A stretch of 64,000 nt of DNA from Prostheceraeus crozeri (lineage: Eukaryota; Platyhelminthes; Polycladida; Euryleptidae), in assembly GCA_907163375.1 (NCBI GenBank), contig CAJQUW010012972.1, forward strand, positions 62,001-126,000, in the 5' to 3' direction. Below the pieces are notes generated by a model, which saw only the letters and a program-made list of their open reading frames with translations, had not been told where the DNA came from and did not search any database. Both the position numbers and the translations under genes were made by a program. Numbering within the stretch: the stretch's first letter is position 1; each line of letters opens with the position of its first letter. This document shows, piece by piece, positions 12,491 through 48,141 of this stretch.

Positions 12491-13437
12491 CCCTGTCCTC
12501 CCCCTGCTCCCGTTCCGACCCAGTCCCTCTTCGCACCGCTTTGGTCCGAGACCACCTTTCCTCCCTCCCCGTTGCTGACCTGACCATCTGGACTGACGGC
12601 TCCGTTATTGGACGACTCGGACCAGGTGGCTCGGGTGTTTTCATAAACTGTTCTTCATGCTCTTCCACTTTCTCTTTTTCCTTTCATGCTGGAGCGCACT
12701 GTTCAAGCTTCACAGCTGAAATGGTTGCAATCCAGCATGCTCTCTCTTGGTCCGTTTCCCATCACTCCTCGTGTCTCTTTTCCTCTATTCTTCTCTTGTC
12801 CGACTCTCTCTCGGTTCTGACCGTGCTCTCTTCATCCCCGTCGCCCCTCTTGTCCACGTCTGTCCACTCTGTCTGGTCCTCATTGTCGTCCCTCTGCTCT
12901 TCCTCGATCTCAGTGTCATTGCAGTGGCTTCCTGGTCACTCGAACATCACTGGCAATGATACTGCAGATGCGCTTGCCAAAAGTGGCACTTCTCTCCCCT
13001 CTGCAGCTCCTCAGTGTCTGTCTTCTCTGAAGTCCTTCATTCGTCATTCCCTGTTCAACTCCTGGAGGACTTCCGTTCGTTCGTCTTTGATTTCTTCACA
13101 AGTCCCTAGCGTAGCAACTGAGGAGCTGTCCCTCCCTCGCGCTGTCCGTTGTGAGCTCTCACGTCTTCGTTGCAACGGCCACAGCCTTCTTCTCAACTCC
13201 TATCTTCACAGGATTGGCAGGTCCACTTCTCCTGACTGCCCTGTTTGTGGTGTAAACCACGATGTACCCCACTTACTGTGCTCTTGTCCCTCCCTCTCTT
13301 CTACCCGAGCGGCTATCTTCGGGTCCTCGGGCTCTGTTTTTGATCTTTGGCATCGCCCGTGGGGGGTTGCCCGCCTCCTCGGTCTCCGTGGCCGTGGCGT
13401 TCCGCCACGCCCCTATCCGCGGGACGGGGTCGGGTAA
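12442..13437 (+). CDS. LINE RNase H domain and C-terminal zinc finger
   Basis: RNase H begins at about 12580 with IWTDGS and carries the family acidic residues in order: D (WTDGS), E (TAEMVAI), D (LLSDSLS) and D (GNDTADALAK). It degrades RNA in the RNA-DNA hybrid. A CPVC...H...CSC finger follows near 13237. The ORF ends seven bases before the 13-bp target duplication, so the 3' UTR is almost absent. It is in a different frame from the RT, separated by an indel within 12442-12490. Confidence 0.85.
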   Translation: MSSLPPWSPPLFSVSLALSSPCSRSDPVPLRTALVRDHLSSLPVADLTIWTDGSVIGRLGPGGSGVFINCSSCSSTFSFSFHAGAHCSSFTAEMVAIQHALSWSVSHHSSCLFSSILLLSDSLSVLTVLSSSPSPLLSTSVHSVWSSLSSLCSSSISVSLQWLPGHSNITGNDTADALAKSGTSLPSAAPQCLSSLKSFIRHSLFNSWRTSVRSSLISSQVPSVATEELSLPRAVRCELSRLRCNGHSLLLNSYLHRIGRSTSPDCPVCGVNHDVPHLLCSCPSLSSTRAAIFGSSGSVFDLWHRPWGVARLLGLRGRGVPPRPYPRDGVG

Positions 13438-24325: not shown

Positions 24326-24352
24326 TGTTAGAAATTGGTCGGTAAATGTATT
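24326..24352 (+). repeat. BEL/Pao 3' LTR, first bases
   Basis: TGTTAGAAATTGGTCGG follows the polypurine tract directly, as expected for the start of a BEL-type LTR. The Polinton is inserted 27 bases in; the LTR resumes at 35813. Confidence 0.8.
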
Positions 24353-25160
24353 AGTAGTAAGTAAAACTCCACCACTGGACCGCGCAAGATGGCCGCCGTT
24401 GCTGACGTCCCCCCCTCCTGTCAGTCGAGTCGGTCGTGGTGAGCCGTCGTGTTGCTTCGAGTCTGACGTCCCCCCCCCTCCTGTCAGCCGAGTCGGTCGT
24501 GGTGAGCCGTCGTGTTGCTTCGAGTCTGACGTCCCCCCCTCCTGTCAGTCGAGTCGGTCGTGGTGAGCCGTCGTGTTGCTTCGAGTCTGACGTCCCCCCC
24601 TCCTGTCAGTCGAGTCGGTCGTGGTGAGCCGTCGTGTTGCTTCGAGTCTGACGTCCCCCCCTCTGGCCGGCCGACGTAGCGAGCGGTGGTTTGTGCTGCG
24701 CTCTCCAGGTTGGCGTGGTGTGCCGGCCAGGTTGGGAGGGTGGAATGTCGTAGCTCACCTGAAAAAATCCTAAGTGTCAGAGTGGCTTTGTATGGTCAAA
24801 ATTTTGAAAATTTTCCAAAGTGTGGCATTTCGACCTGGGACCTTTACCAAAACATTTTTCATCAAATTTCACTGACCCCCCCCCCCCCGACAGCGATCTT
24901 CTAACTTTGGTTCTAGTGGACGGATTTTGTCTTACAGCTACTCGTTTGAAAGAGGAGAAACAACTGCTCCGTGACATTTTTTGTTGCGAGTCAATCGGAC
25001 CAGCCGTTCAAAAGTTAGAGCTGTTACAAGATTTTAGGTCGGAGCTCACCTAAAAAATCCTAAGTGTCAGAGTGACTTTGTACGGTCAAAATTTTGAAAA
25101 TTTTCCAAAGTGTGGCATTTCGACCTGGGACCCTGACCAAAGTTTGTTTCATCAAATTTC
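24353..25160. repeat. Polinton left terminal inverted repeat
   Basis: Matches 34997-35806 in inverted orientation. It includes four 62-bp tandem units (24400-24660), an AAGATGGCCGCC word resembling a YY1 site (24386-24397), and repeated CTGACGTC words. Differences between the arms are mainly poly-C length and a few substitutions. Confidence 0.92.
24400..24660. repeat. 62-bp tandem repeat in TIR, four copies
   Basis: Each unit begins CTGACGTCCCCCCCTCCTGT and ends in TTGCTTCGAGT. Copies differ only in C-run length and single bases. TGACGT is a CRE/ATF half-site, so the array may bind host factors. The same array occurs in the right TIR. Confidence 0.9.
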
Positions 25161-25254
25161 TCCGAACGAGGGGGGGAGGGGGGGTCAGTGAAATTTGATG
25201 AAACAAACTTTGTTCAGGGTCCCAGGTCGAAATGCCACACTTTGGAAAATTTTC
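25096..25254. repeat. 65-bp-arm hairpin at the inner edge of the left TIR only
   Basis: Arms 25096-25160 and 25190-25254 are inverted copies of the inner TIR sequence (GAAAATTTTCCAAAGTGTGG...) around a G-rich 29-base loop. The right TIR lacks this second arm, so the left end carries an extra inverted piece of TIR. Confidence 0.88.
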
Positions 25255-25554
25255 CTGTAAAGGGCGGCGGTGAAACCCGTAGCTATGTATACCGCAAGGG
25301 ACATTCGGCAATGGTCAATCTTGTTTAACCTCTCTGCGTCATGTTTGCAAGTGATTGCCTCTGTCTCAACGTAGTATGCATTCGCGCCAGGGCGACATTT
25401 AGCCAACTGTCGAAGGTTGCCTAAAACTTTCCATTGCATACGTTATGAGAACCATGAGTTCTACCTGTCTCTATCAATGAGACGAATTGATGAATGGAAT
25501 GAAATGGGAGGACACTCACGCGCCACACGCAACATAACACACTTCTCTCTTTCG

Positions 25555-26166
25555 TAGTCTAACAAGCTCTTTACACATGGATCGCAGTCGATTGCTATCC
25601 CTGCATCAGAAGTGTAAGCTATCTAAATTTTATTTAACACTATTTCAACTACCATCATCGCCCATATGAAATGTTTTAAGATTTACAAGTTAGACTAAGC
25701 GTGCTACTATTTCCAAATGAAAAAGTATACATGGTTAAATCATCCACTTAAGCCTATCCATAGTCTAACAAGCTCTTTACACATGGATCGCAGTCGATTG
25801 CTATCCCTGTATCAGAAGTGTAAGCTATCTTAATTTATTTGACACTATTTCATCTACCATCATCGGCCATATGAAATGTTATAAGATTTACAAGTTAGAC
25901 TAAGCGTGCTACTATTTCCAAATGAAAAAGTATACATGGTTAAATCATCCACTTAAGCCTATCCGTAGTCTAACAAGCTCTTTACACATGGATCGCAGTC
26001 GATTGCTATCCCTGTATCAGAAATGTAAGCCATCTTAATTTTATTTAACACTATTTCATCTACCATCATCGGCCATATGAAATGTTATAAGATTTACAAG
26101 TTAGACTAAGCGTGCTACTATTTCCAAATGAAAAAGTATACATGGTTAAATCATCCACTGAAGCCC
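25555..26166. repeat. 206-bp tandem repeat, three copies
   Basis: Units start with TAGTCTAACAAGCTCTTTAC at 25555, 25761 and about 25966 and are nearly identical. They contain no gene and lie between the left TIR and the first coding region of the Polinton. They could be an iteron-like or regulatory array. The 25260-25554 spacer shows nothing else. Confidence 0.92.
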
Positions 26167-26212
26167 CAATCAAGTAAGTCAGTATGAAAGCAAAGATAAT
26201 ACGAAATAAAAA

Positions 26213-26218
26213 TTTATT
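26213..26218 (-). terminator. AATAAA overlapping stop codon of the 149-aa gene
   Basis: A poly(A) signal on the minus strand shares bases with the TAA stop, so the 3' UTR is minimal. The protease gene has the same arrangement. Confidence 0.65.
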
Positions 26219-26666
26219 ATGGCATGTATTTCAAAAGGTCTTCATCGTCAATATCGTCCCAGAGTCTGACTTCACATAGATCGCAAAAACAGTTCACTTG
26301 CTTCAATCGTTCTTCTACCGCGAGCCTCACTTTGTCGATGTACTCCCACTCCGCCATAGTTCGTGGCTGGGAGCTAGGGGTGTACCATTCCCATAATTGA
26401 TGGAGGAATTTGGTGCTGGTGATCTCCATCACATCATCAGTATCGTACTGCAGATACTTCCACCTCACGCCTGTTAAGTCGGGACACTCCTTCTCACACA
26501 CAATCTCCTCTTCGTCGTCCGCTGGTAATGACAACTTTCTGATATTGTCCAGTCGGTATATTTTCTCCACCTTCCCCTTCGTTGGAGCGTTTGGTGCAAC
26601 GAGCGCCTTTGGTGTTGAGCATGGAGAAGAGAATTTTGTGTTCGGCGTTGTCGGAGGGCATGTCAT
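26217..26666 (-). CDS. Polinton small acidic protein, unrecognised (149 aa)
   Basis: It starts at an ATG downstream of a TATA-like box near 26765. The N-terminus (residues 1-30) is Pro/Thr/Ala-rich. An acidic run DDEEE lies near residue 50. The C-terminal third has a CFCDLC cysteine cluster, possibly metal-binding, and an acidic tail. It is the last gene at this end, separate from the capsid block, and its stop codon overlaps an AATAAA signal (26213-26218). I do not recognise a family; it may be an early or host-interaction protein. The frame is intact. Confidence 0.65.
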   Translation of the reverse strand: MTCPPTTPNTKFSSPCSTPKALVAPNAPTKGKVEKIYRLDNIRKLSLPADDEEEIVCEKECPDLTGVRWKYLQYDTDDVMEITSTKFLHQLWEWYTPSSQPRTMAEWEYIDKVRLAVEERLKQVNCFCDLCEVRLWDDIDDEDLLKYMP

Positions 26667-26723
26667 GTTGACTGTGAATAATAACTTTGAAATGTTTTCT
26701 AATTCTTAAGTATAAACAAGCAA

Positions 26724-26773
26724 CCAATCAGAATGAACAGCCAATGAATGATGAATATGAAAGTATATATATG
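26724..26773 (+). promoter_or_regulatory. CCAAT-CCAAT-TATA module, plus-strand orientation
   Basis: CCAAT boxes at 26724-26728 and 26741-26745 (17 bp apart) are followed by TATATATA at 26764-26771. The same spacing appears on the minus strand at 34671-34719 in front of the spliced gene. Read forward it points into the short interval 26.79-26.97 kb. Because the TATA box is self-complementary it may instead serve the 149-aa gene on the minus strand. Confidence 0.5.
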
Positions 26774-26809
26774 TAAAGTGACATTCGTATCATTTCACAC
26801 TGTCTTTGA

Positions 26810-26897
26810 GACGTATAAGTTAAGTGTTCTCTGGCGAATTCTGTTATTATTTGAGGCGTACAAGTGAACTGCTCTCTCGTGAATTCCAAAATTGAGT
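26810..26897. repeat. Imperfect direct repeat of about 36 bp, two copies
   Basis: GAGACGTATAAGTTAAGTGT... and GAGGCGTACAAGTGAACTGC..., each ending in GAATTC, about 52 bp apart. They lie in the only sizeable non-coding gap between Polinton genes. Confidence 0.7.
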
Positions 26898-26907
26898 GAA
26901 GTATGTA

Positions 26908-26940
26908 CTGATTGGGTACTGATTGGGTAGTGATTGGGTA
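26908..26940 (-). promoter_or_regulatory. Three tandem CCCAATCA boxes
   Basis: An 11-bp unit CTGATTGGGTA is repeated three times, which gives three CCAAT boxes on the minus strand, upstream of the 149-aa gene. An AATAAA on the plus strand follows at 26964-26969. Confidence 0.6.
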
Positions 26941-26994
26941 TGTACGTACCCAGCGGATTGTAAAATAAAAAACAATTTTTCAAACATGATGTTT

Positions 26995-27456
26995 TTATTT
27001 CAAATCATGATAGAACTTACAAATCATTTTTTCATTAGAGGATGGATTACATGAAAAGTTTTGAATAACAGATACAAATCGAGATGCATGTAAACGTTTT
27101 AAGATGAAGTACAGTACAAAAGCACCACACGTTGATGAAAGTGGATGTTGTAGTATGCGTTCATTTCGCTGATATTGACGTGTATGTTTTCTCAACCACT
27201 GCTGTGTTGGTATATTTGGAGGTTGAGCAAGAGAGTCAAATAGTTCACCACGTCGGTCTTCTCCAATAAAGATCGCTTTCCAATGCTCACCGCCTAAATT
27301 CTGCGAATGAGTGTTTAGCACAATAAAGATGAGATAGTGATTTACTGCAGGTGGTAAGGTATCGAGCGAATAGACATAATCGAAAGCTTTCAACGTCGCT
27401 TCGTCTGCATTACGCTGTACTTTAGTTTTAATATCGTCAGCAGTCAACCAACTCAT
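26995..27456 (-). CDS. Polinton adenovirus-type cysteine protease (adenain-like, 153 aa)
   Basis: It matches the C5/Ulp1-type fold pattern. The catalytic His lies in GGEHWKAI (about residue 58), followed by an acidic residue in LFDSLA (about residue 74). The catalytic Cys is in STCGAF (about residue 128), with a Gln-rich stretch before it. In adenoviruses and Polintons this enzyme trims capsid and core precursors at xGG-x sites, and two neighbouring proteins here carry QxGG sites. Its ATG overlaps the capsid stop (TAATG), implying coordinated expression. The stop overlaps AATAAA at 26994-26999. The frame is intact. Confidence 0.88.
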   Translation of the reverse strand: MSWLTADDIKTKVQRNADEATLKAFDYVYSLDTLPPAVNHYLIFIVLNTHSQNLGGEHWKAIFIGEDRRGELFDSLAQPPNIPTQQWLRKHTRQYQRNERILQHPLSSTCGAFVLYFILKRLHASRFVSVIQNFSCNPSSNEKMICKFYHDLK

Positions 27457-28737
27457 TAACGATTATACTGAAGAATCACGTCACGATACTTTGTAATTTC
27501 AATATTTGAATCGAAGACTGCATAAATTAATACATTGATCGTCTCAGGTAGTGTTCTTTTGAACGTCAAATCCAAACGAATATTATGAGGCACGTTCGCT
27601 TGACGATAGGGTGCACTAATATCGCTGTCAGCAGTCAAATCAAATGCATAAATAGTATATCCACTCTTAAACTCTTTCATAGTCAGTCCGTTGGTGTCAT
27701 CCGTATTGTAAAAGCCAAAGACATCCATAAAATCAACATATCTGCGCATAAATTGATCCGAAGCACAATCTGGTTTGTAGGGTGGACCAGGATGACTCAC
27801 ACCATTTACACGTAAAGCAATTTCACTTAACTGATTGTGTTTAAAATTGAAAGGATTCTTCTTTATATTACCATTAAATGCATCATTTTCAACCATTGCC
27901 ACCATGAGGAGCTTCGGTGCTTCCGATGGAAAGAGGCCATCTTTCATGAAACTCTTTTGATCTTTCGGAATTGTAAAGGTGAGAAGCTTTGTATGCTGAA
28001 CGGGGTAAATGGCATTTTGGCGGTTAAGACCTTCAGCATGTCCTCTAATATTAGACACTTGGATTCGGTACTACTCGACGAATGTAAAGTGCAATATCTT
28101 CCACATGAATTCTAAAGTTGTCAACTTTATCAAATGCATTCAGCGCAAATTCAGGCTTATTCAATGTCAGCTTGAGTCGCATGCTGGTATTACAGAGTAA
28201 AAACTTTGACTGTCTAAAGAAGTCTAAATTCAGCGGACCATATAGCTGACATACTTTACTATCTTTAATCATAGCAGATCGCTTTACAAAGCCACTGCTT
28301 GTTTCAGCATCAAATTTTCCTGCTTCATCTCTGTACCATCCCATGGCTTCCATATGACTTTTTTGTGCTGCTGGATGAAACTGTGATACATGATTGAAAT
28401 ATGATTTATAGGGATAATCGCTTTGGCCACCTTCCACCTGCTGCTCTCCAATCGTTAGAGAAACATCGCGAAGTAATGTAGTCAATGGTAAATTGTTCAG
28501 TCCAACTTTATGTGCATCGTCAATAGCAGTTCCATCTGCTTGCTGAATTCTAAACCTCAAATCAACCATCGCATAACTCAAATCTATGTAGTCATCACTA
28601 CCACCAGGAATAACAAATTCAATGGGGCCAGCATTCCCAGCTGTTCGAGGATGATAATCTACAATACTTGAACTAAGAATATCTGTCTGTATGGCTTGTT
28701 GATCAAACAAACAAAACCCGGAAGTTTTACACTCCAT
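27456..28737 (-). pseudogene. Polinton major capsid protein (double jelly-roll), one frameshift
   Basis: Two overlapping open frames (28737-28051 and 28058-27456) together give about 430 residues. They resemble the Polinton major capsid protein, known in databases through nematode F54H12.2-like proteins: an early VDYHPR...IEFVIPG block, YIDLS, LLRDVSL, YPYKSY, then KNPFNFKH, RRYVDFMD, the SGYTIYAFDLT segment and INVLIYAVFD near the end. It would form the hexameric capsid shell. The frame changes at about 28051-28058 and the second half has no ATG. Whether this is mutation, assembly error or programmed shift is unknown. An ATG follows the core-gene stop closely. Confidence 0.85.
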
Positions 28738-28739
28738 GA

Positions 28740-29195
28740 TTAGAAGTTATGGCAGCGTCGTCGTTTAGCGCCTGATGAATGATTAGAGCCTCTGCGACGT
28801 TTGCGTGAATGCCTTTTGACTGAAGATCGCACCTTACCAGCTCCGCGATGTTTCCTTCTTCCTTTATTCATTCGTTTAGGCGATTTCTTTCCTTGAGTAA
28901 CACCAGCAATGGTCTGCTTCAATGTTTTTAAACCGCGTTCCTTCCCACGATTCAACAAACTGCTCTTAAAACTTCTACCTCTGGAAAGATCACTAGCAAC
29001 ATCACCAGCAAAGCCAACGGCATTACTTAAAACATTTCGTTTTAAAGATCTACCGACATTGGATATGAGAGGTGCTACAACAGATTTCAGTGCACCAAGT
29101 ATGCTACCTCCACGTTGGCGGCGAGCGCCGCTGTAAATTTGTCCTCCACTACTTACATAGGAGGGTCGTGAATAAAATGAGGCAGTTGGATTCAT
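28740..29195 (-). CDS. Polinton basic core/membrane-active-like protein (151 aa)
   Basis: The N-terminal part has SGGQIYSGARRQRGG followed by a hydrophobic/amphipathic stretch (SILGALKSVV...). The C-terminal 60 residues are extremely Arg/Lys-rich. QRGG|S fits the adenain consensus (Q)xGG-x, so the protein is probably cut by the neighbouring protease, as adenovirus pVI and core peptides are. It may carry a membrane-lytic peptide plus a DNA-condensing tail. The TAA stop is two bases before the capsid ATG. The frame is intact. Confidence 0.7.
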   Translation of the reverse strand: MNPTASFYSRPSYVSSGGQIYSGARRQRGGSILGALKSVVAPLISNVGRSLKRNVLSNAVGFAGDVASDLSRGRSFKSSLLNRGKERGLKTLKQTIAGVTQGKKSPKRMNKGRRKHRGAGKVRSSVKRHSRKRRRGSNHSSGAKRRRCHNF

Positions 29196-29236
29196 AGCTC
29201 AAACCCTAAACATTGTTAGTTACAACTTTGCATGAA

Positions 29237-30501
29237 TCACTGTCGATCACTTAGATGAAAGATGTCGGCACGACGCATCCAAGAGTTCATACTTGAAGGA
29301 TAACCAGTCCATTTAACAAGACACCATTCTTGACCTTGTCGTTTTTTACATCGAATGATTTTCTCTACCAAATATGTTTCACTTTCAGTGACTACCTCAA
29401 TCTCATCGCGGTAAAAGCTACCCACAATTTCTTCATTATCGTAATCTTTCAACTTGTAGGTGGTGGGAGAGTCTCTTTGATCAATCCTTGATACTGTAAA
29501 TACCTCCTCTGTCCAATTCGGAAGTTACCCTTTAGCAAAAACACTTCACTTTTGAGATACGAACTTTATCACCAATTTTCACATCACTTTTCACATGAGT
29601 GCGTTTACGTTGGAATGATTCGCGCACTTTATCTACATTGTCAGCATTTACATCTACTGGTCTGAGTCCAATAGAACGATGGATAGAGTGATTGTAGGCA
29701 TGGAGTGTATCTTGTAGAACCTTTGTCCAATTTTGTGTCAAGTTGGCAGTAAAATGTCGCCACAAGCGATTTTTTAATGTGCGATTAAAACGTTCAACGA
29801 GTGCAGCTTTATAAGCACTCTTTACACTAAACAACTCAATGTCATGCCTCTCAAATAATCTTCTCACATGCTGATTTTCAAACTCTTTTCCTTGATCACT
29901 CTGAATTCTTTTTGGAATGCGACCTTCTCGAAAAATTGTTTGGAATGCTTTTGCTACTCCTTTCCCTTCTTTAGTTTTTAAAGGTTGAGCCCACGCATAA
30001 CGCGAGAAAATATCAATGACGGTTAAAATAAAATTATTGCCCGAGTTATGTTTTGAAATGGAGGCAACATCACACAAATCTGCTTGCCACTGTTCATCGA
30101 TGTCATGAACAATATAATGGCGGGTGTGGTACTTCTTTTTCGCTTGTTTGTGGAGTGTATAGGTAGCCTGACCCTTTAACCATCGTTTCACTTGTGATTG
30201 TGGAAGACCACTCGCTTTTGATAATTTCTTGATCGATGCAAATCCTGCCGGATGTTTTACATCATAACAGATTGACTTCAAACGCTCAGTCGATGACGAC
30301 TGACTCTTTTTCCTCCTTCTCATCTTTTTGCTTTCTTGCCTTTCTACATTTACAACAACTGCAGCATTTAGCTTCAGCGGTTTTGCGATCGTGTTCACAT
30401 TGCTTAGGAGTTTCATTGTGAGAGCTGGCGCAGGAGGTGCAAGTGACAACGACACTCACCTCTGGCGGCTCATTACATGGCAAGCAACACATCTGCTTCA
30501 T
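29237..30501 (-). pseudogene. Polinton integrase with N-terminal Cys-rich region and C-terminal chromodomain (broken)
   Basis: The only plausible ATG is at 30501, one base after the upstream stop. It opens a Cys-rich segment (CCLPC, CTSC, CCSCCKC), possibly zinc-binding. The frame then shifts near 30300 into the rve core (29532-30455 frame): catalytic D in QADLCDV, D in IQSDQGKEF, E in ALVERFNRTLKN. A second frame change near 29535 and a TAA near 29525 separate the C-terminus. That part (29452-29237) is a chromodomain with YLVEKIIRCKKRQGQEWCLV and KWTGY. Chromodomains target integration to modified histones. The integrase makes the 6-bp target duplication; this copy is not translatable as one protein. 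Confidence 0.85.
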
Positions 30502-30502
30502 A

Positions 30503-31195
30503 TTAATAGTCTGAGAACATGTATTTCTTGGGAGGAGCTGTTTTACGTTTTCCTTTTACTAGTTTTAGTGGTGGTGTAGATCTACGTCGAGTTCTTCCTC
30601 TTGTTTGCTTAGTGAGTGTGGGAGGGGATGTAGCAGGTGACGTCTTAAACCAATTTGTAGGCATTTTCATCGTCTGAAGCATTGGAGCAGTAGCCACTGT
30701 TGAATCAAGTTCTTTCAATGTCTCATTATTCAAAGCAAATTTTGGTACATTATGGTTTTTCAATAGTTTAAGAAAGTATGTCCAACCAGGTGGAACATAG
30801 CCCTGACGGCGCTTTCTACGTGTCGCATACTGAATCAAGTCTTCATAACGTGAAGCATCAATCACCTTATTTTCATCTGTAATGATTTCTCCTCTATCAT
30901 TTACATTGAGATGGGGTTCAATACTATTGAAAAGAGATATGGCATGTGCGCGAGATGCTAAAGGTGTAGCAGTCGATACAGAGTCACGCATCTTATTCTT
31001 CAAGTTTTTCAATTGCTCAACAGTTTCCGATTGTAATAATACAGCACGATGTGGATCTTTGATGTGAACATTTTGCTGATAATCTATTTCTTTCCTATAC
31101 ATTTGATTTGCAAGAGGTTGCTTTACTTGCTGCATGGCAGTCAATTGTACATATTCATCCTGAGGAATAACAATCATGCGAGAATAAGAACTCAT
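30503..31195 (-). CDS. Polinton protein of unknown function (230 aa)
   Basis: The ATG overlaps the ATPase stop (ATGA). A middle coiled-coil-like stretch (LLQSETVEQLKNLKNKMRDS) leads to YEDLIQYATRRKRR, then GYVPPGWTYFLKLLKNHNVP, and a Pro/Lys/Arg-rich tail. The PPGW..F..LL...NVP pattern is one I associate with uncharacterised Polinton proteins, but I cannot name a function. Its place between ATPase and integrase, in the capsid block, suggests a virion or assembly role. The frame is intact. Confidence 0.65.
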   Translation of the reverse strand: MSSYSRMIVIPQDEYVQLTAMQQVKQPLANQMYRKEIDYQQNVHIKDPHRAVLLQSETVEQLKNLKNKMRDSVSTATPLASRAHAISLFNSIEPHLNVNDRGEIITDENKVIDASRYEDLIQYATRRKRRQGYVPPGWTYFLKLLKNHNVPKFALNNETLKELDSTVATAPMLQTMKMPTNWFKTSPATSPPTLTKQTRGRTRRRSTPPLKLVKGKRKTAPPKKYMFSDY

Positions 31196-31809
31196 AGTTT
31201 GTAGATAATCATGGGAGTTTTCAAAATATCACTTCGAAATCTAAATTCTTCCGGACACTCTTGCGTAAAGTCAATGAATAAGTAACCGTGTGGTTTTTCA
31301 GTAGCTGCTTGAAAAATTTCAATTAAGGCTTTTGATCCTCTTGGTGCAACTTGTCGAGCTAAAATTTCAAATTGACTTTTATCTCGCGGATTCTTGAAAA
31401 TAGCATAATAGTGTGTATTCAGGTTTCGTGTACGAGCTTCTTTTCCATCAGGAAACAAATTTTGTGTGATATAGATGATAAAGCACCTTTTATGATGTGC
31501 TGCGCGAGTGAACATATCTGTAACATCTTTTGAATTCTTACTTTCTTTTAATAAATCATCCAATACAACAACATCATTAGACTGAAGTTTAGCCACTGCA
31601 ATAATTCCTCCATGTCGAATAAAGTTGCGACTTTGCAATTCCTGAAACAGCGACGGTTGATAAATACCATAACACCAAATCACTCGATTGATAGGTTCCT
31701 TAAACAACTCCCTTCTTTTATCCAATAAATTCAGCGTGAAAACAGTTTTACCTGCATGAGATGGACCTGATACAGTCAGAACTTTATCACATTGAAGTCT
31801 GAAATCCAT
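31192..31809 (-). CDS. Polinton genome-packaging ATPase (FtsK/HerA type, 205 aa)
   Basis: I place the start at the ATG at 31809 (MDFRLQCDKV); the open frame upstream begins only with TTG. The Walker A is GPSHAGKT, the Walker B is DVVVLDDLL, and the sensor-like YITQNLF follows. These mark the A32-like packaging ATPases of Polintons and relatives, which pump DNA into capsids. Length is typical. The stop overlaps the ATG of the 230-aa gene, and the gene ends in phase with the capsid block. No damage seen. Confidence 0.88.
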   Translation of the reverse strand: MDFRLQCDKVLTVSGPSHAGKTVFTLNLLDKRRELFKEPINRVIWCYGIYQPSLFQELQSRNFIRHGGIIAVAKLQSNDVVVLDDLLKESKNSKDVTDMFTRAAHHKRCFIIYITQNLFPDGKEARTRNLNTHYYAIFKNPRDKSQFEILARQVAPRGSKALIEIFQAATEKPHGYLFIDFTQECPEEFRFRSDILKTPMIIYKL

Positions 31810-31840
31810 TATAATACTTTGAGATTCAACATTTGCATAA

Positions 31841-32191
31841 TTAACGTCTAGAGCCAAAGATATTACCCAATACGTTGCCCACGATAGGAGCTAGCATCGG
31901 TAGTAACGCTGGAAGGAGACCACCCTTTTGTGTTAGAGTTTCCCTCTTTCTTTGAAGGGTGACTTTAGGATTGGAGATGAAACGCAATTTCGTAGCATAT
32001 CGCTTAAGTAACTTTCGTTGTTTTGGTGCTAATTTCTTCGTCCTCAACTTTCTCACATGAGAAATAATTTCACGAATGAATTTATCGTTAGCATGTCGTA
32101 TAGCATTGTATCGCTGATTTGCTTTCATTCGTCGGAGAGCTTGAATGGCTGAAGAAAACTTTGAAGACTTTTGACTTTTACGTTTCGCCAT
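31841..32191 (-). CDS. Polinton basic protein with adenain site and hydrophobic tail (116 aa)
   Basis: Residues 1-85 are Lys/Arg-rich (MAKRKSQKSSKFSS...). QKGG|L near residue 90 fits the adenain consensus, and the last 26 residues (LLPALLPMLAPIVGNVLGNI) form a hydrophobic, probably membrane-active helix. The layout is the mirror image of adenovirus pVI (helix released by cleavage), so it may be a minor capsid or endosome-penetration protein. The frame is intact. Confidence 0.65.
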   Translation of the reverse strand: MAKRKSQKSSKFSSAIQALRRMKANQRYNAIRHANDKFIREIISHVRKLRTKKLAPKQRKLLKRYATKLRFISNPKVTLQRKRETLTQKGGLLPALLPMLAPIVGNVLGNIFGSRR

Positions 32192-32243
32192 TTTCCGTGT
32201 TAGTCTTTGCTAAAAACCTGTCTTTACCACATTTGCATAGGTA

Positions 32244-32567
32244 CTAACTATTGCGACATAAGTGACACTCGAAATGAGCAATATCACAGTGGTTACATTT
32301 GCAAAGTTGAATGCAATTACGTATGAAACAGCGTTGACAAAAAGCATGCTTACATCTCTTGAAGATGCGCTTTTCATTTCCATCCTTTCGGTTACATACA
32401 TCGCAATACATAGTTTCACCGTTACTGATGTCTATAGCAAGTCTTTTTGAAGATATGAATTTGCTAGCCTTCTCTAAATAATAGACGCATGTACAGAAGG
32501 AATATACTTCGAGAGTGAGCAGACATAGCTCGAAAACCAGTTGTGCTACAATCAAGTACCACTGCAT
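32244..32567 (-). CDS. Membrane RING-like zinc-finger protein (107 aa)
   Basis: The ATG at 32567 overlaps the previous stop region. The N-terminal 35 residues are hydrophobic (MQWYLIVAQLVFELCLL), giving one or two membrane segments. The C-terminal part has CDVC, then CKHAFCQRC, then CKCNHC and CHLC. CxxC...CxHxxCxxC...CxxC is the RING arrangement of E3 ubiquitin ligases. RING proteins are not part of the Polinton core set, so this looks like cargo for host interaction. The frame is intact. Confidence 0.6.
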   Translation of the reverse strand: MQWYLIVAQLVFELCLLTLEVYSFCTCVYYLEKASKFISSKRLAIDISNGETMYCDVCNRKDGNEKRIFKRCKHAFCQRCFIRNCIQLCKCNHCDIAHFECHLCRNS

Positions 32568-32569
32568 TT

Positions 32570-32980
32570 TCAATTTTTCTTTATAGAAAGTTGAATGTGA
32601 ATATCTGAAATCGCTTCAATCACTAGACTGCTGCCATGATGGTTAAATGCGTTAAGACGTTCAGTAATTTTTATCATATGTCTTTTAAAAAATTCTTCGG
32701 GGTGATCTACCACTTCCATTGAATAAGAAGCAAAATGGAAAGAGCGACTTTCCACCTCTTCCTTTCCAAAATGACTAAACTTAATTTTCGCAACTAATCG
32801 CGCCATGACAATGCTATCAGAGAATGTATTCATTAACTCTAGAAATAGAGTGCTAGCATCATCGACCGCTGCTTCGATGTCGGTCTCATCTTTATGAAAA
32901 TTTATCACATAATCTTGAACAGCTCTTTTTAAACTTTGCCTATGAAAATGTAATGTTCCGCAGTCGTTTGAGAAAGACAT
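32570..32980 (-). CDS. PolB N-terminal-domain-like protein (136 aa)
   Basis: The last 50 residues (ITERLNAFNHHGSSLVIEAI, then DIHIQL) resemble the N-terminal segment of Polinton and related protein-primed B-family polymerases, where an F..xGSgw...I..l.I.i motif precedes the exonuclease domain. Here the protein stops right after that motif, and none of the exonuclease, TPR or palm motifs follow. It is either the stump of a deleted polymerase or an independent small protein. The match is by recall and moderate. Confidence 0.5.
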   Translation of the reverse strand: MSFSNDCGTLHFHRQSLKRAVQDYVINFHKDETDIEAAVDDASTLFLELMNTFSDSIVMARLVAKIKFSHFGKEEVESRSFHFASYSMEVVDHPEEFFKRHMIKITERLNAFNHHGSSLVIEAISDIHIQLSIKKN

Positions 32981-33064
32981 GATCGCTCTTTATCTAACCC
33001 ATCTATTGCATGAAAACAACTCTTCTCATAGTAACATTTATTGAATAACGGTAACAAGCATGCA

Positions 33065-33615
33065 TTATAAATCATTGGTTTGAAACAGATAAAATAGATA
33101 CAGCTGGTAACTATCATACAGCGAGCAATGATGACCATACAGGACTTTGGCAGTGTTGAGGTAAGGAGGAAAGAAGCATTGGTTATGAACGTAGCTACTA
33201 CAACGAACAGACAAAATAGGAACACACAAATCCTTAAAACGTTTCGTGACTTCATGGTAGTGTTGATTCACTCTACTATCCCAAGGTGGGAGCAAAATGT
33301 CATCAATGATTAGATTGTGAAATACTTTCCTCTCCTTACCAGGATTATTACAAAAGATGCGTATAACATTCAAAGCAGCTAACCATCGTCAATAAGAAGA
33401 GCACTCTCACAAGAAAAGCCATAGTCTTGCAAATATTTCAGATTAAGTCCATGAATGTGTTTTCTCGCCCATTGATCAACATTGGGATCGCAGTTGGCAT
33501 GTTGATGATAGACACTAACAATCTGATATGTCCAATTGTTCATAGCAATAGCACTGAGCTCCTGTACAGGTTCACCCTCACAATCCATAAAAATGATGAT
33601 AGAAGCCTAAAACGG
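33065..33615 (-). pseudogene. DEDDh-type 3'-5' exonuclease, frameshifted
   Basis: The first frame (to 33379) carries FMDCEGEPVQELSAI, an exo-I motif (D-x-E), and an ARKHIHGL segment. The second frame (33373-33065) continues with CNNPGKE, LPPW, and GHHCSLYDSYQLYL, an exo-III motif with H-x4-D as in TREX, epsilon and related DEDDh enzymes. The frames switch near 33376 and the second half has no ATG. A TTTTAG acceptor-like sequence at about 33613 hints that the true start may be spliced. PolB exonuclease domains are DEDDy, so this is a separate enzyme, not a PolB remnant. Confidence 0.6.
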
Positions 33616-33640
33616 AAATTTACACATCTAAGGAAACGTT

Positions 33641-33841
33641 CTATAACATATTACAAAATGAAGAATTACATCGATGCTTTTCACGACAAAATACACAAAT
33701 GATATGATGGCAACGAAGAAGTAAAATGTATCTAATAAGACCACGTCTACGACACTCAAAGCACATAAGCGAATTGTCATAGGGTAGAGTTAGGAAAGGA
33801 CTAGTAATTCTCCTTCTTTGATTTGCGTTTTGAGGCAGCAT
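33641..33841 (-). CDS. Small RING/zinc-finger-like protein (66 aa)
   Basis: The first ATG in this frame (33841) overlaps the end of the spliced gene by about 40 bp. A CFEC, RCHHIICVFC, C....FC pattern forms a compact CxxC...CxHxxCxxC...C...C zinc-binding module, RING-like but with a short spacing. It is the second such finger in this element. Function unknown; host-interaction cargo is a guess. It could also be an exon of the exonuclease gene. Confidence 0.5.
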   Translation of the reverse strand: MLPQNANQRRRITSPFLTLPYDNSLMCFECRRRGLIRYILLLRCHHIICVFCREKHRCNSSFCNML

Positions 33842-34575
33842 TCTTGTCCGACTTGCGCTTCGTACCACTGCTGTTAAGGATTTGATCAATTATGTCGTCC
33901 ACGTTGGGTGGTTTTGGAATATATAGGATGGATTCCATATGCATGGAGAGCACGGCTATTTTATTATCCTTGTGCCGACCATAATATAGCCCATTCACTT
34001 TGAAAAGGATATCCCAAGTACCTTCTCCGAGCTCGTCGCATGTGATGGGTGTTGAATGATCTCCCTCCTTCTTATAGTAAGTGCACCAATGTGATACCGG
34101 TAGGCAGATGTGATTACCATCCCAAATCTTTCTATAGGGAGTATCCTTGTCATCTCTCGCCTTCCACTCTTGAGCAAGAGGAGTAGGAATGTCCATATTT
34201 AATGTCACGTACTCCTCAATAATATCAAGTTGGTGGCGAATGTACGGACTCACGGGGATCAGTATGTAGTCCCCATACTGATTGTGCATTATCTTGACAT
34301 CCGTGGAAGGGAGCATTCCCGTTTTGAGTACTACGCTATGATCGTCATAACGCAAGACTTGTTTAAATTTACGCTGTAGCGGTGTAGGATTATGCACCTT
34401 GGATGTTTCTTCCACTGGCCTCAGTTGTAGATGATCTGATCGTAGCGAACCTTGTAACGTTTGACCGCCATTTTGTCCTACTAGTGCAGCAGATGGAGTA
34501 GATGCCTGAAAATGAAAAAGATTGTATTAAGTTTACGTTCAAGGGAGGAGAGGGAGGGAAGTAGCGACTTACCAT
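33801..34575 (-). CDS. Spliced Polinton gene of unknown function (235 aa)
   Basis: The open frame upstream of 34415 has no ATG of its own. It runs to a good acceptor (TTTTCATTTTCAG) whose first exon base is 34505. An ATG at 34575-34573 is followed at once by a perfect donor GTAAGT. Removing 34506-34572 (67 bp) joins the ATG in frame to ASTPSAALVGQNGG... The protein has a folded-looking middle (PVSHWCTYYKKEG, TWDILFKVNGLYYGRHKD, SILYIP) and a Lys/Arg-rich C-terminus that could be a nuclear signal. The middle could be an OB-fold DNA-binding protein; this is inference. A CCAAT-CCAAT-TATA promoter lies upstream. Confidence 0.75.
34506..34572 (-). other. 67-bp intron directly after the start codon
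   Basis: GTAAGT donor after ATG and TTTTCATTTTCAG acceptor. The phase is 0, and the downstream frame is open from the first exon base. Such an intron means host Pol II transcription and nuclear splicing. Confidence 0.75.
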
Positions 34576-34670
34576 TTTAGTTGGATAATAGAATAGAGAG
34601 AGAGAGAGAAAATGTGCGCCCGTCACTCGTGCGATTCAACGATGGAATGATTCTCACTGTGGAAGGGTCG

Positions 34671-34719
34671 CTATTCATATAGAAATGCTTGATTCTCATT
34701 GGATGATGATCCTCATTGG
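34671..34719 (-). promoter_or_regulatory. CCAAT-CCAAT-TATA promoter of the Polinton minus-strand genes
   Basis: On the minus strand CCAAT boxes lie at 34719-34715 and 34702-34698 (17 bp apart). A TTCTATATGAAT TATA-like box follows at about 34682. The start codon of the spliced gene is about 100 bp further. Spacing matches the module at 26724-26773. Confidence 0.7.
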
Positions 34720-34996
34720 ACAATAACATCAAGCTAATTCCAAATCTGGCCTCCGTTTACCAATCCGAGCCTTCGTTCGCCCGCTGGAGCTGTTTCTTGG
34801 GAAATTCTAACTCTGTCGTTTTTTCACCAATCTCCCAAATCTTGAATGGCGTCTCACATTTAAACGAAGACAGATATGAACAAGCCGTTTCTTTCAGTGA
34901 ATTTGTTTCACTCTTAGCTTTCAAACGAGCTATTGCACGACTTTCTACGATCACTAGAAGCAAAATTGGAAGTTTGGTGCCGGGGGGGACGTCAGT
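34720..34996. other. Polinton spacer between promoter and right TIR
   Basis: No gene. A stretch near 34900-34970 resembles inner TIR sequence (CTTTCAAACGAG, CACTAGAA-type words), suggesting older TIR duplication. Confidence 0.5.
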
Positions 34997-35806
34997 GAAA
35001 TTTGATGAAAAATGTTTTGGTAAAGGTCCCAGGTCAAAATGCCACACTTTGGAAAATTTTCAAAATTTTGACCATACAAAGTCACTCTGACACTTAGGAT
35101 TTTTTCAGGTGAGCTCCGACCTAAAATCTTGTAACAGCTCTAACTTTTGAACGGCTGGTCCGATTGACTCGCAACAAAAAATGTCACGGAGCAGTTGTTT
35201 CTCCTCTTTCAAACGAGTAGCTGTAAGACAAAATCCGTCCACTAGAACCAAAGTTATAAGATCGCTGTCGGGGGGGGGGTCAGTGAAATTTGATGAAAAA
35301 TGTTTTGGTAAAGGTCCCAGGTCGAAATGCCACACTTTGGAAAATTTTCAAAATTTTGACCATACAAAGCCACTCTGACACTTAGGATTTTTTCAGGTGA
35401 GCTACGACATTCCACCCTCCCAACCTGGCCGGCACACCACGCCAACCTGGAGAGCGCAGCACAAACCACCGCTCGCTACGTCGGCCGGCCAGAGGGGGGG
35501 ACGTCAGACTCGAAGCAACACGACGGCTCACCACGACCGACTCGACTGACAGGAGGGGGGGGACGTCAGACTCGAAGCAACACGACGGCTCACCACGACC
35601 GACTCGACTGACAGGAGGGGGGGGGACGTCAGACTCGAAGCAACACGACGGCTCACCACGACCGACTCGGCTGACAGGAGGGGGGGGACGTCAGACTCGA
35701 AGCAACACGACGGCTCACCACGACCGACTCGACTGACAGGAGGGGGGGGGACGTCAGCGACGGCGGCCATCTTGCGCGGTCCAGTGGTGGTGTTTTACTT
35801 ACTACT
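34997..35806. repeat. Polinton right terminal inverted repeat
   Basis: Inverted copy of the left terminal repeat. It has the same four tandem 62-bp units (about 35496-35758) and runs to the AGTAGTAAGTAAAAC terminus (reverse strand) at 35806. Confidence 0.92.
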
Positions 35807-35812
35807 TGTATT

Positions 35813-36455: not shown

Positions 36456-37394
36456 GAAACTAAGGAAGGCGATATCATCATGGAAAGCGACAAAATTCTG
36501 AAACGTTGGGAAGAGTACATCGGGGAGTTGTTTGCTGGGGAATGAGGTGAAGCTCCACCACAACCCAATACAAACGGAAATCTAATTCTCAAAGAGAAGA
36601 TCGTTTGTGCGCTAAGGAACATGTCTAAAGGACGAGCAGCAGGACCGGACGGAATCGTCGTAGAGATGCTTGATGCGATGGAAGAATTCGGTGTCGAGAA
36701 GATCACTCATTTGGCCAATCAGATCTATGAAGAAGGTCGTTTCCCCCAAGAGATGTGTAAGTCTGTCTTTATCACATTGCAGAAAAAGCCAGGTGTGACA
36801 AAATGCGACCAACGCCGTACGATCAGCCTCATGAGCCACCTAGCAAAGTTGATCCTTCGAGTTGTTCTGAAACGCTTGCGTGGGAGAACAGAGAGCGAGA
36901 TAGCAGAGGAACAGTATGGTTTTACAGCAGATAAAGGCACGCGAAATGCTATATTTGTGCTGAGAAGGTTGGCTGAAAGGTGTATCGAGGTGCAACGAGA
37001 TCTTTTCGTTTGTTTCGTAGACTATGTAAAGGCCTTCGACAAAGTACTACACGAGCCTTTGATGGCCCTACTTCTATCTCTTGATGCTGATGGGAAGGAC
37101 ATCGAATTAATAACGAACTTGTACTGGAATCAGCAGGCAGCAGTGAAGATAGATGGAGTTCTAAGCGATTACACTACTGTGGAAAGAGGTGTTCGACAGG
37201 GTTGTGTTCTGTCCCCTCACCTCTTCTCGTTATACACAGAGATAATCATGAGAAACGTTAAAGAAATGGATGGTGTTAGAGTTGGAGGTGACAATATGAA
37301 TAATTTGCGACACGCAGACGATATGGTGCTTCTTGCTGACACTGAGGAAAAACTACAGGCTAACGTCGATAAAGTGACAAACGAGGTGAACCAG
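36456..37394 (+). pseudogene. RTE-clade LINE reverse transcriptase, 5' half
   Basis: From ILKRWEEYIGELF through AAGPDGI, LQKKPGVTKCDQRRTIS, EEQYGFTADKGTRNAIF, the motif A region (VCFVDYVKAFDKV), RGVRQGCVLSPHLFSLY and the motif C region LRHADDMVLLAD. The motif C box has H in place of the usual Y, which is likely inactivating. A stop lies near 36541. The domain breaks off after the DKVTNEVNQ block at 37394; what should follow is found inverted at 38555-37846. Confidence 0.85.
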
Positions 37395-37845
37395 GTGAAC
37401 GAGGTGAGGCCATTTGGTTTTATCAAATGGCGGTGTGATATCCTAAATCAATCAGGTGTGTCGCAGAAATCGGGGTGTCATGGTTGACATCCACTTAACG
37501 GAATTGCTCGCGATGCAGGAGATATGTATTAGCGCTTTTGCTTATTAAAGACTCATTCACAGTTTGTATGTGACTTGCCTCGATAAAATGAGCGGTCGTT
37601 GATTATCTTTTGATCAAACCGTGATGAGATATGAAAGCTAGATGTGGAGAAAGGAGAGAAATGCGACCAGATCACTGTTTGAATGGGTCAGATAATCCCA
37701 TCAGTCTGTGTATGAAGCGTGCATGACAGGCCAGATGTTAATAGAGCAAGCTTATTGCCGCTTACCTAAAAGAATTAGAAATATTCCACATCTGTGAAAG
37801 CATTTGTGTGAGTGTCAATAAGTAAAAGCGTGAATTCCTGCAAAG

Positions 37846-39112: not shown

Positions 39113-40210
39113 CACGTGTAATCGTGATAAAAATGGACATGATATCTAAAAAGAATGCTGTAGTTATCAATTGTACATCACATTGATGCTGGGTCTTTGA
39201 GATTTGAAGTAATTTCTCTCACTGACTATACATTCATCGACATTGGCAAAAAACGTCTGTAAAATTTTTATCTTTATATCACAAGCTGATGGATTTAATT
39301 GATGTTTCATATGAAAATGCTGGTATACAAGATTTGTTTTACTATTTACATGCTCTAAAATTCGATTCCGCATCGTGCACTGAGTTTCACCTATATAAGT
39401 CTGTTGACATTTGTTGCAAGTGATTTTATATACATTTTTCAAAAAACATAAATTGTTGTTATTACACGAACAAGACTTATTGGGTGGATAATACACATTG
39501 GTGTTATACACATGTTTCTTCTTGATTTGGCGAAATAACGATGGTGGAGTAACAAACACTGGTTCCACGTTCAAAATTGGAATTTTGAATATTATATAGG
39601 AAATAGCCTATAATATCACATAATATATTATACATTATATAGGAATATTTATTTGGGAACGAATTTGTCTTGCTTGATTTTCATTGATAAAAGGAATACG
39701 AACACAAGCTTGCTTTTCGTGGTTAGTACGCGTATGATATGATGGAACAAAAGGTTTTTATATTTGTTGGCTTAATGCTTGGGATATCCATTTGAAGCAA
39801 AACGATGCTTGACAAAAGATATACCCTCTTCAATCAATGTAAAGGTGGTACAATTTCGATGAACTAGGAAACATTCATTTTTCATCAAAACAATCTTTCT
39901 AATTAACGAAGATTTCCCATGGTAACAAATGACAGTGAGTGAGACATGAGTGGACTTAAAATAAAACGAACTTAAACACGAATTATTCGCGAAAGAAACT
40001 TCTGTGTCCAAAAATGAAATAGGTCTACTAGAATTTTCGGGGGCACTCAACAGTAGATTGAATACAATCATTTATGCAATTCAACTAGGGAAGTATATCA
40101 ACCAAAGTGGAAAATAAAATAACAAAAATATCATCAATAGATCTTTTCCAAAACATAAAACGTGATGAATCAATAGATAGAAGTTGCCTCTCTACATGAA
40201 ATACATAAAC

Positions 40211-47473: not shown

Positions 47474-48141
47474 ATCAGTTTTTCAAGCCTTAATATCATT
47501 TTTTCCAGTTACTCTTGGTGCACCTCAAGATGGTGCTCAGCCCATACTTCCCTCCCTATATATCGCCCCAATGGCGCCACGTCTATTGGTCGGTTTGTTT
47601 GCATCCCCTTCATGTTGCCACAGGCGTAAATGAAGTCCCAGCACGAATCATCACCTAAGGGATTGGGATATTATAAGAAAGAAAATAGCTGCACTTACTC
47701 TGCCAAAATATGATAAATTGAAGAAATTTCGAAGATAGGAGAAGTGAAAAGAAGTCTATCATTTAATAATCGAGGCATGTCTCTCACTCTGCATCATATA
47801 ACGAGACATTTCCAAAAAACTAGAAATGTGCAGAAGACAGCGTCGACCTTTTTTGAATATCGATTGAGACAAATCTGATGAAGTATCAAGTCTCTCCCTG
47901 CCTTCGAATGTACGTTTTCTTGTCAACAGGCAGTTACGCGGTTTTTCAATTAATTATTGGATTATAATTATGCATGAACAAGATCACCACTGCGGTAATT
48001 ACTGCTCTTAGTTTTGTCAAAACCATTTAAAACTAACAATATACTATGCTTCATTCTGTGCTTCTTAAGTGAGACCTAATTTAAATCCTATCATTTCATT
48101 TACTGAATCGAATTAGATATGATAAACAGCACTGCACTTAC
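47474..48141. other. Intron sequence next to NOMO exon; nothing else seen
   Basis: No repeat or domain recognised. Confidence 0.5.

What the first reader, a model, noticed from the sequence alone, without database searches (positions are those of the whole stretch)
24353..35806. Young, terminally complete Polinton with capsid genes but no visible DNA polymerase
Seen: AG...CT ends, TGTATT duplication, 0.81-kb TIRs about 98% alike, and the protease, ATPase, capsid and integrase set in 11.45 kb. Known: Polintons usually encode a protein-primed PolB of about 1,000 residues or more. Here the only trace is a 136-aa protein resembling the PolB N-terminus. Either a family that replicates with host or helper polymerase, or a deletion copy.
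Basis: partly seen in the sequence, partly recalled or inferred. Interest (0 to 1): 0.88.

Follow-up and report, generated by a model that had tools for sequence, protein, structure and literature searches.

The report
Polymerase-less Polinton with lone terminal protein
A recently inserted virus-like mobile element, probably in an animal genome, seems to keep the protein that starts its DNA copying but encodes no visible DNA polymerase, so it may borrow another element's enzyme.

Summary
Window 24353-35806 is a TIR-to-TIR Polinton-type element: TGTATT duplication, (AGT)2 ends, 0.81-kb TIRs 98.6% identical outside gaps, integrase, chromodomain, protease, packaging ATPase. No polymerase match in 91 stop-to-stop pieces >=45 aa. 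The 136-aa "trace" is a gene of its own: nine relatives (47-90% identity), eight ending 3-8 residues after the same motif. Its model has the topology published for PRD1-type terminal proteins; all 50 listed PDB rows are Y-family polymerases, most aligned at the little finger; an invariant Ser117 lies where the priming residue is expected. The 204-aa frame models as a gp2.5-type SSB. This copy is decaying: three genes lie in two frames each. Best reading: a lineage that primes with its own TP and takes PolB in trans. Loss of a separately encoded PolB is a close rival: the assembly search did not complete (17 requests), relatives' contigs could not be fetched, and none of the nine TP clusters lists a contig over 3,169 bp. 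The capsid gene is unconfirmed. New variant of a known kind; interest 0.6.

The parts
24347..24352 (.). TGTATT target-site duplication, left copy
   Evidence: read directly; matching copy at right
35807..35812 (.). TGTATT target-site duplication, right copy
   Evidence: read directly
24353..25160 (+). left terminal inverted repeat (~0.81 kb), starts AGTAGTAAGTAAAAC, includes 4.3 copies of a ~61-bp unit
34997..35806 (-). right terminal inverted repeat (~0.81 kb)
25555..26165 (.). three 205-bp tandem repeats between the left TIR and the first gene
26217..26666 (-). 149-aa ORF, unassigned
   Evidence: no Pfam match
26995..27456 (-). Ulp1/adenain-like cysteine protease (153 aa)
   Evidence: Pfam Peptidase_C48 E 3.9e-4, just above cut-off; weak PDB match to cysteine protease S273R, E 0.013
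27459..28070 (-). putative major capsid protein, second part (stop-to-stop frame, 204 aa)
   Evidence: capsid identity from position and recall, not confirmed
28054..28746 (-). putative major capsid protein, first part (231 aa); a different frame from the second part
   Evidence: not confirmed
28740..29195 (-). 151-aa very basic ORF, unassigned
   Evidence: nothing significant in Pfam
29240..29524 (-). chromodomain part of the integrase, in a different frame from the core
   Evidence: Pfam Chromo E 1.9e-8 for its ORF, best 3.2e-8 among the 91 pieces
29532..30455 (-). rve-type integrase core (307 aa)
   Evidence: Pfam rve E 2.5e-11
30503..31195 (-). 230-aa ORF, unassigned
   Evidence: no Pfam or PHROGs match
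31192..31857 (-). genome-packaging ATPase (221 aa from TTG; first Met at residue 17)
   Evidence: 766 homologues, best 98% identity; 9 of 24 aligned sequences match Pox_A32; tree
31841..32191 (-). 116-aa basic ORF, possibly Adeno_PX-like
   Evidence: Pfam Adeno_PX E 0.025, below cut-off
32244..32573 (-). 109-aa Cys-rich ORF, unassigned
   Evidence: no significant Pfam match
32570..32980 (-). 136-aa stand-alone terminal-protein-like gene; Ser117 candidate priming residue
   Evidence: 9 relatives, alignment, AF2 pLDDT 87.5, little-finger fold matches, adintovirus and MELD virus matches
33068..33606 (-). ORF in two frames (33382-33606 and 33068-33388); possible DEDDh-type exonuclease
   Evidence: frames; exonuclease motif by eye and recall only; no Pfam, PHROGs or PDB match
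33641..33889 (-). 82-aa Cys-rich ORF, overlaps the next gene
   Evidence: Pfam zf-RING_5 E 0.33, not significant
33801..34415 (-). 204-aa gp2.5-type single-stranded-DNA-binding protein candidate (GTG-started frame; true start unknown)

Best explanation
The element is a full-length insertion of a Polinton-type lineage that has its own terminal protein (TP) as a separate gene and probably a gp2.5-type SSB, but no DNA polymerase. Proposed cycle: the (AGT)2 ends are opened; the 136-aa TP offers Ser117 as primer; a protein-primed PolB supplied in trans, most likely by a co-resident autonomous Polinton/adintovirus, adds the first nucleotides with slide-back on AGT-AGT and copies the strand; the element's SSB covers displaced strands; its own ATPase, protease and capsid proteins package the product; its own integrase inserts it with a 6-bp duplication. 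Shown here: ends, duplication, integrase, protease and ATPase, no PolB found in this copy, a separate and conserved 136-aa gene, TP-like and SSB-like predicted folds. Inferred: capsid, priming by Ser117, trans-acting polymerase, packaging, and that the whole lineage lacks PolB.
Against: No relative was seen whole. The nearest (ATPase 98%, SSB 96%) lists a 12,876-bp contig: if it lacks both TIRs it holds ~3 kb more than this element's 9.84-kb body, room for a PolB. None of the nine TP clusters lists a contig over 3,169 bp, so the separate TP was not seen on any of the five ATPase contigs over 10 kb among hits of >=80% identity; the listing shows only 1-2 contigs per TP cluster, so this is inconclusive, but it is also what TP-PolB fusions there would give, since the search admits only proteins 0.55-1.75 times the query length. 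Polintons with a separate TP and a separate vOTU-PolB exist (Stylophora, PMC11071308). No PolB-bearing partner was found, because the assembly search did not complete. The SSB model is of middling confidence, and the MELD PolB match has rmsd 8.0 with no matched range given.
Confidence: 0.45

Rival explanations
1. Deletion copy or deletion subfamily of a split-TP Polinton: its ancestor encoded the TP and, elsewhere, a separate vOTU-PolB gene, which this copy or its subfamily lost. The TP is then a normal gene of an otherwise PolB-bearing virus.
For: Split TP with PolB in the same genome is described for a Stylophora polinton (PMC11071308, section 11). The best BFVD match to the TP is a 560-aa protein of Drosophila-associated adintovirus 2, a virus reported to have a PolB and nearly the gene complement of adintovirus 1 (PMC8363768, passages). 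The nearest relative's contig, 12,876 bp, could hold ~3 kb more, and the TP was not seen on any contig over 3,169 bp. At 11.45 kb the element is shorter than the 12.7-24.6 kb of intact vertebrate Mavericks.
Against: Genes from 26995 to 33889 are closely packed, with small gaps or overlaps, and no PolB remnant was found in any frame. The 3,169-bp length shared by P0002 and P0121 argues against PolB between TP and ATPase in a 90-94% relative. Among ATPase hits with >=80% identity, 3 of the 5 contigs over 10 kb are 11.2-11.4 kb; this is weak, since more distant hits show such lengths too.
Confidence: 0.38
2. Host-polymerase use: TP and SSB initiate or protect ends, and the host's own polymerase extends from the TP or copies the integrated element passively.
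For: No polymerase found. Bellas et al. write that many protist EVEs lack a detectable polymerase gene, which could indicate an alternate mode of replication (PMC10120064, passages).
Against: As far as I recall, known protein-primed systems pair a TP with a dedicated PolB; a conserved TP is hard to explain under purely passive copying.
Confidence: 0.1
3. The 136-aa protein is not a terminal protein but a little-finger-fold DNA-binding protein with another role, and the element is a dead derivative mobilised only as integrase substrate.
Against: BFVD matches include an adintovirus protein and a MELD virus PolB; Ser117 is conserved at the published position; the gene is conserved to 47% identity.
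Confidence: 0.06

Closest known systems
Polintons/Mavericks and adintoviruses of animals
   Same: 6-bp duplication, (AGT)2 ends, long TIRs, rve integrase with chromodomain, Ulp1/adenain-like protease, packaging ATPase; predicted TP fold as in the PolB N-terminal D1 domain
   Different: no pPolB found; TP-like protein is a separate 136-aa gene; 11.45 kb against 12.7-24.6 kb for intact vertebrate Mavericks (PMC8097293); assigned genes all on one strand, which that paper reports only for Xenopus tropicalis among vertebrates
Stylophora coral polinton with separate TP gene (PMC11071308, section 11)
   Same: TP encoded apart from PolB
   Different: it encodes vOTU-PolB; none was found here
Tlr1 element and PLVs lacking pPolB (PMC11071308, introduction passage)
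   Same: capsid-type element without canonical pPolB; Tlr1 has an rve integrase
   Different: they carry other large replicases (Tlr1-like helicase, PolA-S3H, AEP-S3H); no ORF in this element exceeds 307 aa
Virophages and the PLV Gezel-14T (PMC10120064, passages; otherwise recalled)
   Same: helper-dependent capsid-encoding element is the lifestyle proposed here
   Different: the helper would be another Polinton, not a giant virus; unproven
Protein-primed phages PRD1, Bam35, phi29
   Same: separate TP and SSB, terminal repeats; PRD1 TP fold
   Different: they encode their own PolB (recalled for PRD1 and phi29); Bam35 and phi29 SSBs are described as a divergent OB-fold-like group (PMC8276246, passages)

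Membership tests
Polinton/Maverick | terminal inverted repeats with 6-bp target-site duplication | tested here: met
Polinton/Maverick | (AGT)2 or (AG)3 end motif | tested here: met
   AGTAGT at both ends; motif from PMC8097293
Polinton/Maverick | rve integrase with C-terminal chromodomain | tested here: met
   both domains found, in two different frames
Polinton/Maverick | Ulp1/adenovirus-type protease | tested here: met
   Peptidase_C48 20.8 bits against cut-off 20.7; Peptidase_C5 13.7 against 21.3, not reached
Polinton/Maverick | FtsK/A32-type packaging ATPase | tested here: met
   the window's own protein is weak (Pox_A32 E 0.036); 9 of 24 aligned sequences match Pox_A32 at E<=0.01
Polinton/Maverick | double jelly-roll major capsid protein | tested here: inconclusive
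   two frames of 231 and 204 aa in the expected place; no library match; not modelled
Polinton/Maverick | penton/minor capsid protein | tested here: inconclusive
   no ORF assigned
Polinton/Maverick and Adintoviridae | protein-primed PolB | tested here: not met
   no DNA polymerase family among the 6 Pfam and 5 NCBIfam families matched by 91 pieces at E<=0.01 (no PolB positive control run); adintoviruses are defined by PolB in PMC11071296 (passages)
PRD1-type terminal protein | 4-stranded sheet, sometimes with one more strand, and two helices, little-finger-like | tested here: met
   predicted order E-E-H-E-E-H-E after a short E2-4 strand; 50 of 50 listed rows Y-family
PRD1-type terminal protein | Ser/Tyr with nearby Gly/Pro in the loop between helix 2 and the last strand | tested here: met
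   Gly116-Ser117 between H94-114 and E119-134; Ser117 in 9 of 9 sequences with a homologous C-terminus (criterion)
PRD1-type terminal protein | covalent attachment to 5' DNA ends | not testable with these tools
   needs biochemistry
gp2.5-type SSB | OB-fold of gp2.5 type | tested here: inconclusive
PLV with alternative replicase | S1H/S3H helicase fusion, PolA or AEP | tested here: not met
   no such family matched by the 91 pieces; no ORF above 307 aa in the element

The most novel reading that the evidence does not exclude
A stable lineage of Polinton satellites, probably of animals: capsid-encoding, self-integrating elements that keep their own terminal protein and SSB but have given up the polymerase, and parasitise PolB-bearing Polintons as virophages parasitise giant viruses. 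Surveys anchored on integrase plus PolB (as in PMC8097293, methods passage) would have missed them.
Probability: 0.28. Interest if true: 0.82.

Novelty: new variant of a known kind. Interest (0 to 1): 0.6.

Why it matters
Polintons are called self-synthesising because they carry their own polymerase. An integrase-bearing, probably capsid-encoding element that keeps only the primer protein would show that a TP can work with a polymerase from elsewhere, would make a Polinton-on-Polinton satellite relation testable, and points to a class of elements that PolB-anchored surveys cannot see. It also gives a compact natural TP candidate (136 aa) with a conserved candidate priming serine.

Tried and rejected
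Rejected: (a) the 136-aa ORF as a truncated PolB stump of this copy. (b) PolB hidden in another frame; no PolB positive control was run, pieces under 45 aa were not scanned, and Pfam did not list the ATPase frame at E<=0.01, so a very diverged gene could escape, but no ORF without an assignment exceeds 241 aa stop to stop. (c) Contig lengths near 11.3 kb as proof of a PolB-less genome: more distant ATPase relatives show the same lengths.

Led nowhere: viral contigs with the ATPase, its alignment, the integrase, both capsid pieces, the TP and SSB alignments and a TIR unit: 8 of 8 scans, no relative. Genome contigs, 2 of 2 scans, none. Phage records, none. PDB by sequence: nothing significant for the TP profile, the two exonuclease-like pieces and the two capsid pieces; the ATPase profile found only short RecA and Schlafen stretches. 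PHROGs on nine proteins: best E 0.0049, an unknown family, for the 136-aa protein. Rfam on the window: none. BFVD with the SSB model: 56 matches at E<=0.001; the 50 listed are mostly uncharacterised giant-virus proteins, TM 0.31-0.50, no adintovirus among them. The DEDDh-exonuclease idea for 33068-33606 is a by-eye motif without support.

Literature: term searches returned 0 papers; one search returned 30, of which 20 were listed and none opened; some searches were seen as listings apart from the eight papers opened. Of those, PMC11071308 was seen as passages and two sections; PMC8097293 as passages and one section; PMC11071296, PMC8363768, PMC12721341, PMC4028283, PMC10120064 and PMC8276246 as passages. 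The adintovirus paper sought by DOI was not held.

Full report
OBSERVATION. The finding is real. Both ends carry AGTAGTAAGTAAAAC, which occurs nowhere else in the window even with one mismatch. They are flanked by TGTATT direct copies. The TIRs align over 808/810 bp with 793 identities, 11 mismatches and 10 gap columns. By my reading of that alignment 6 of the 11 mismatches lie in the last ~35 bp, where the arms stop matching, so the repeats proper are above 99% alike in substitutions; 9 of 10 gap columns are in C-runs, where assembly error is possible. The core has 9 stop-to-stop frames >=150 aa, all on the minus strand, against a shuffle mean of 0.16 for both strands. A blastn of the element against the rest of the window gave nothing at E<=1e-3.

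GENE SET. Pfam gives an rve integrase core, a chromodomain and a C48 protease, the last just above its cut-off. The ATPase has 766 homologues; 9 of 24 aligned sequences match Pox_A32, though the window's own copy does so only at E 0.036. In a midpoint-rooted tree of the window's ATPase with the 120 listed of the 766 homologues, the window sits in a group of 28 with support 0.91, inside one of 38 with support 0.99. The two frames at 27459-28746 are next to the protease, the usual place of the major capsid gene as I recall it, but no library match confirms this. No penton was assigned.

THIS COPY IS BROKEN. The integrase core and its chromodomain lie in different frames (29535-30455 and 29240-29524), as do the two capsid parts (28054-28746 and 27459-28070) and the two parts of 33068-33606. 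That each pair was once one gene is inferred from order and, for the integrase, from the known domain fusion (PMC11071296, passages). A handful of indels or stops over ~9 kb is roughly what neutral decay since insertion could give at the age the TIRs suggest (inference). I did not test for assembly error; the junctions shown contain no long homopolymer.

NO POLYMERASE. None of 91 stop-to-stop pieces >=45 aa, both strands, matches a polymerase or helicase family in Pfam or NCBIfam at E<=0.01. The same Pfam scan recovers integrase, chromodomain and protease but did not list the ATPase, so its sensitivity is limited, and no PolB control was run. The stronger argument is space: no ORF without an assignment exceeds 241 aa stop to stop.

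DO RELATIVES LACK POLB? Only indirect evidence. P0002 (ATPase, 94%) and P0121 (TP, 90%) share a longest-contig length of 3,169 bp. P0001 (ATPase, 98%) and P0130 (SSB, 96%) share 12,876 bp. That is 1.4 kb longer than the element, but if the contig lacks both TIRs it would carry ~3.0 kb extra, which could be PolB. Moreover none of the nine TP clusters lists a contig over 3,169 bp, so the separate TP was not seen on any of the five ATPase contigs over 10 kb among hits of >=80% identity. The listing shows only one or two contigs per TP cluster, so this does not decide, but it fits a TP-PolB fusion there as well as it fits incomplete listing. These are the main facts against my reading. The window's assembly could not be searched: 17 unanswered requests.

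MECHANISM. (AGT)2 is the commonest vertebrate Maverick end motif, and such repeats are held to allow the jumping-back of protein-primed initiation (PMC8097293, section 7 and passages). The element thus has the expected ends, a primer-protein candidate and an SSB candidate, but not the enzyme. The simplest account is a PolB supplied in trans by another Polinton. The main rival is loss of a separately encoded vOTU-PolB, because a split-TP Polinton with PolB exists (Stylophora; PMC11071308 section 11).

COMPARISON. By a published definition of adintoviruses, which includes PolB (PMC11071296, passages), this copy is not one. It works like a Polinton in its ends, integrase, protease and ATPase. PolB-less capsid elements are reported in protists (PMC10120064, passages), and genomes with adenovirus-class virion proteins that lack recognisable PolB and integrase are mentioned in PMC11071296. 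What I did not find described in the searches, of whose papers I opened eight and none whole, is an integrase-bearing Polinton with a separate TP and no polymerase. I file it as a new variant of a known kind.

Noticed in passing
48113-50614, - strand: 833-aa ORF with seven NOMO-named Pfam domains (best 8.7e-25): the host is an animal or other eukaryote with a NOMO gene.
   Followed up: partly
9363-13437, + strand: LINE-type retrotransposon: endonuclease, reverse transcriptase and RNase H in overlapping frames, in a stretch of high GC and strong C excess.
   Followed up: partly
59439-61741, + strand: Second non-LTR-type retrotransposon with endonuclease and reverse transcriptase domains.
   Followed up: partly
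36621-37487, + strand: Reverse transcriptase fragment less than 1 kb from the element's right end.
   Followed up: partly
39167-39574, - strand: Weak GIY-YIG match (E 8.7e-4, below Pfam cut-off); perhaps a Penelope-type remnant (recall).
   Followed up: no
25555-26165: Three 205-bp tandem repeats inside the element between the left TIR and the first gene (a 76-bp part is 95-97% alike); no counterpart at the right end is listed; function unknown.
   Followed up: partly
25096-25254: 70-bp inverted repeat, 96% complementary with a 19-bp loop, at the inner edge of the left TIR; one arm resembles TIR segments at 34982-35061 and 35270-35349.
   Followed up: no
12-1216 and 1249-1348: About 1.2 kb of irregular CAA-rich repeat next to a 100-N assembly gap.
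   Followed up: no
BFVD A0A7D4VFN9: A 560-aa 'C2H2-type' protein of Drosophila-associated adintovirus 2 matches the TP model over 130 alignment columns (TM 0.79 on the query): perhaps another TP detached from PolB and joined to zinc fingers.
   Followed up: no
32244-32573 and 33641-33889, - strand: Two small Cys/His-rich ORFs, RING-like by eye, near the TP and SSB genes; no significant Pfam match.
   Followed up: no
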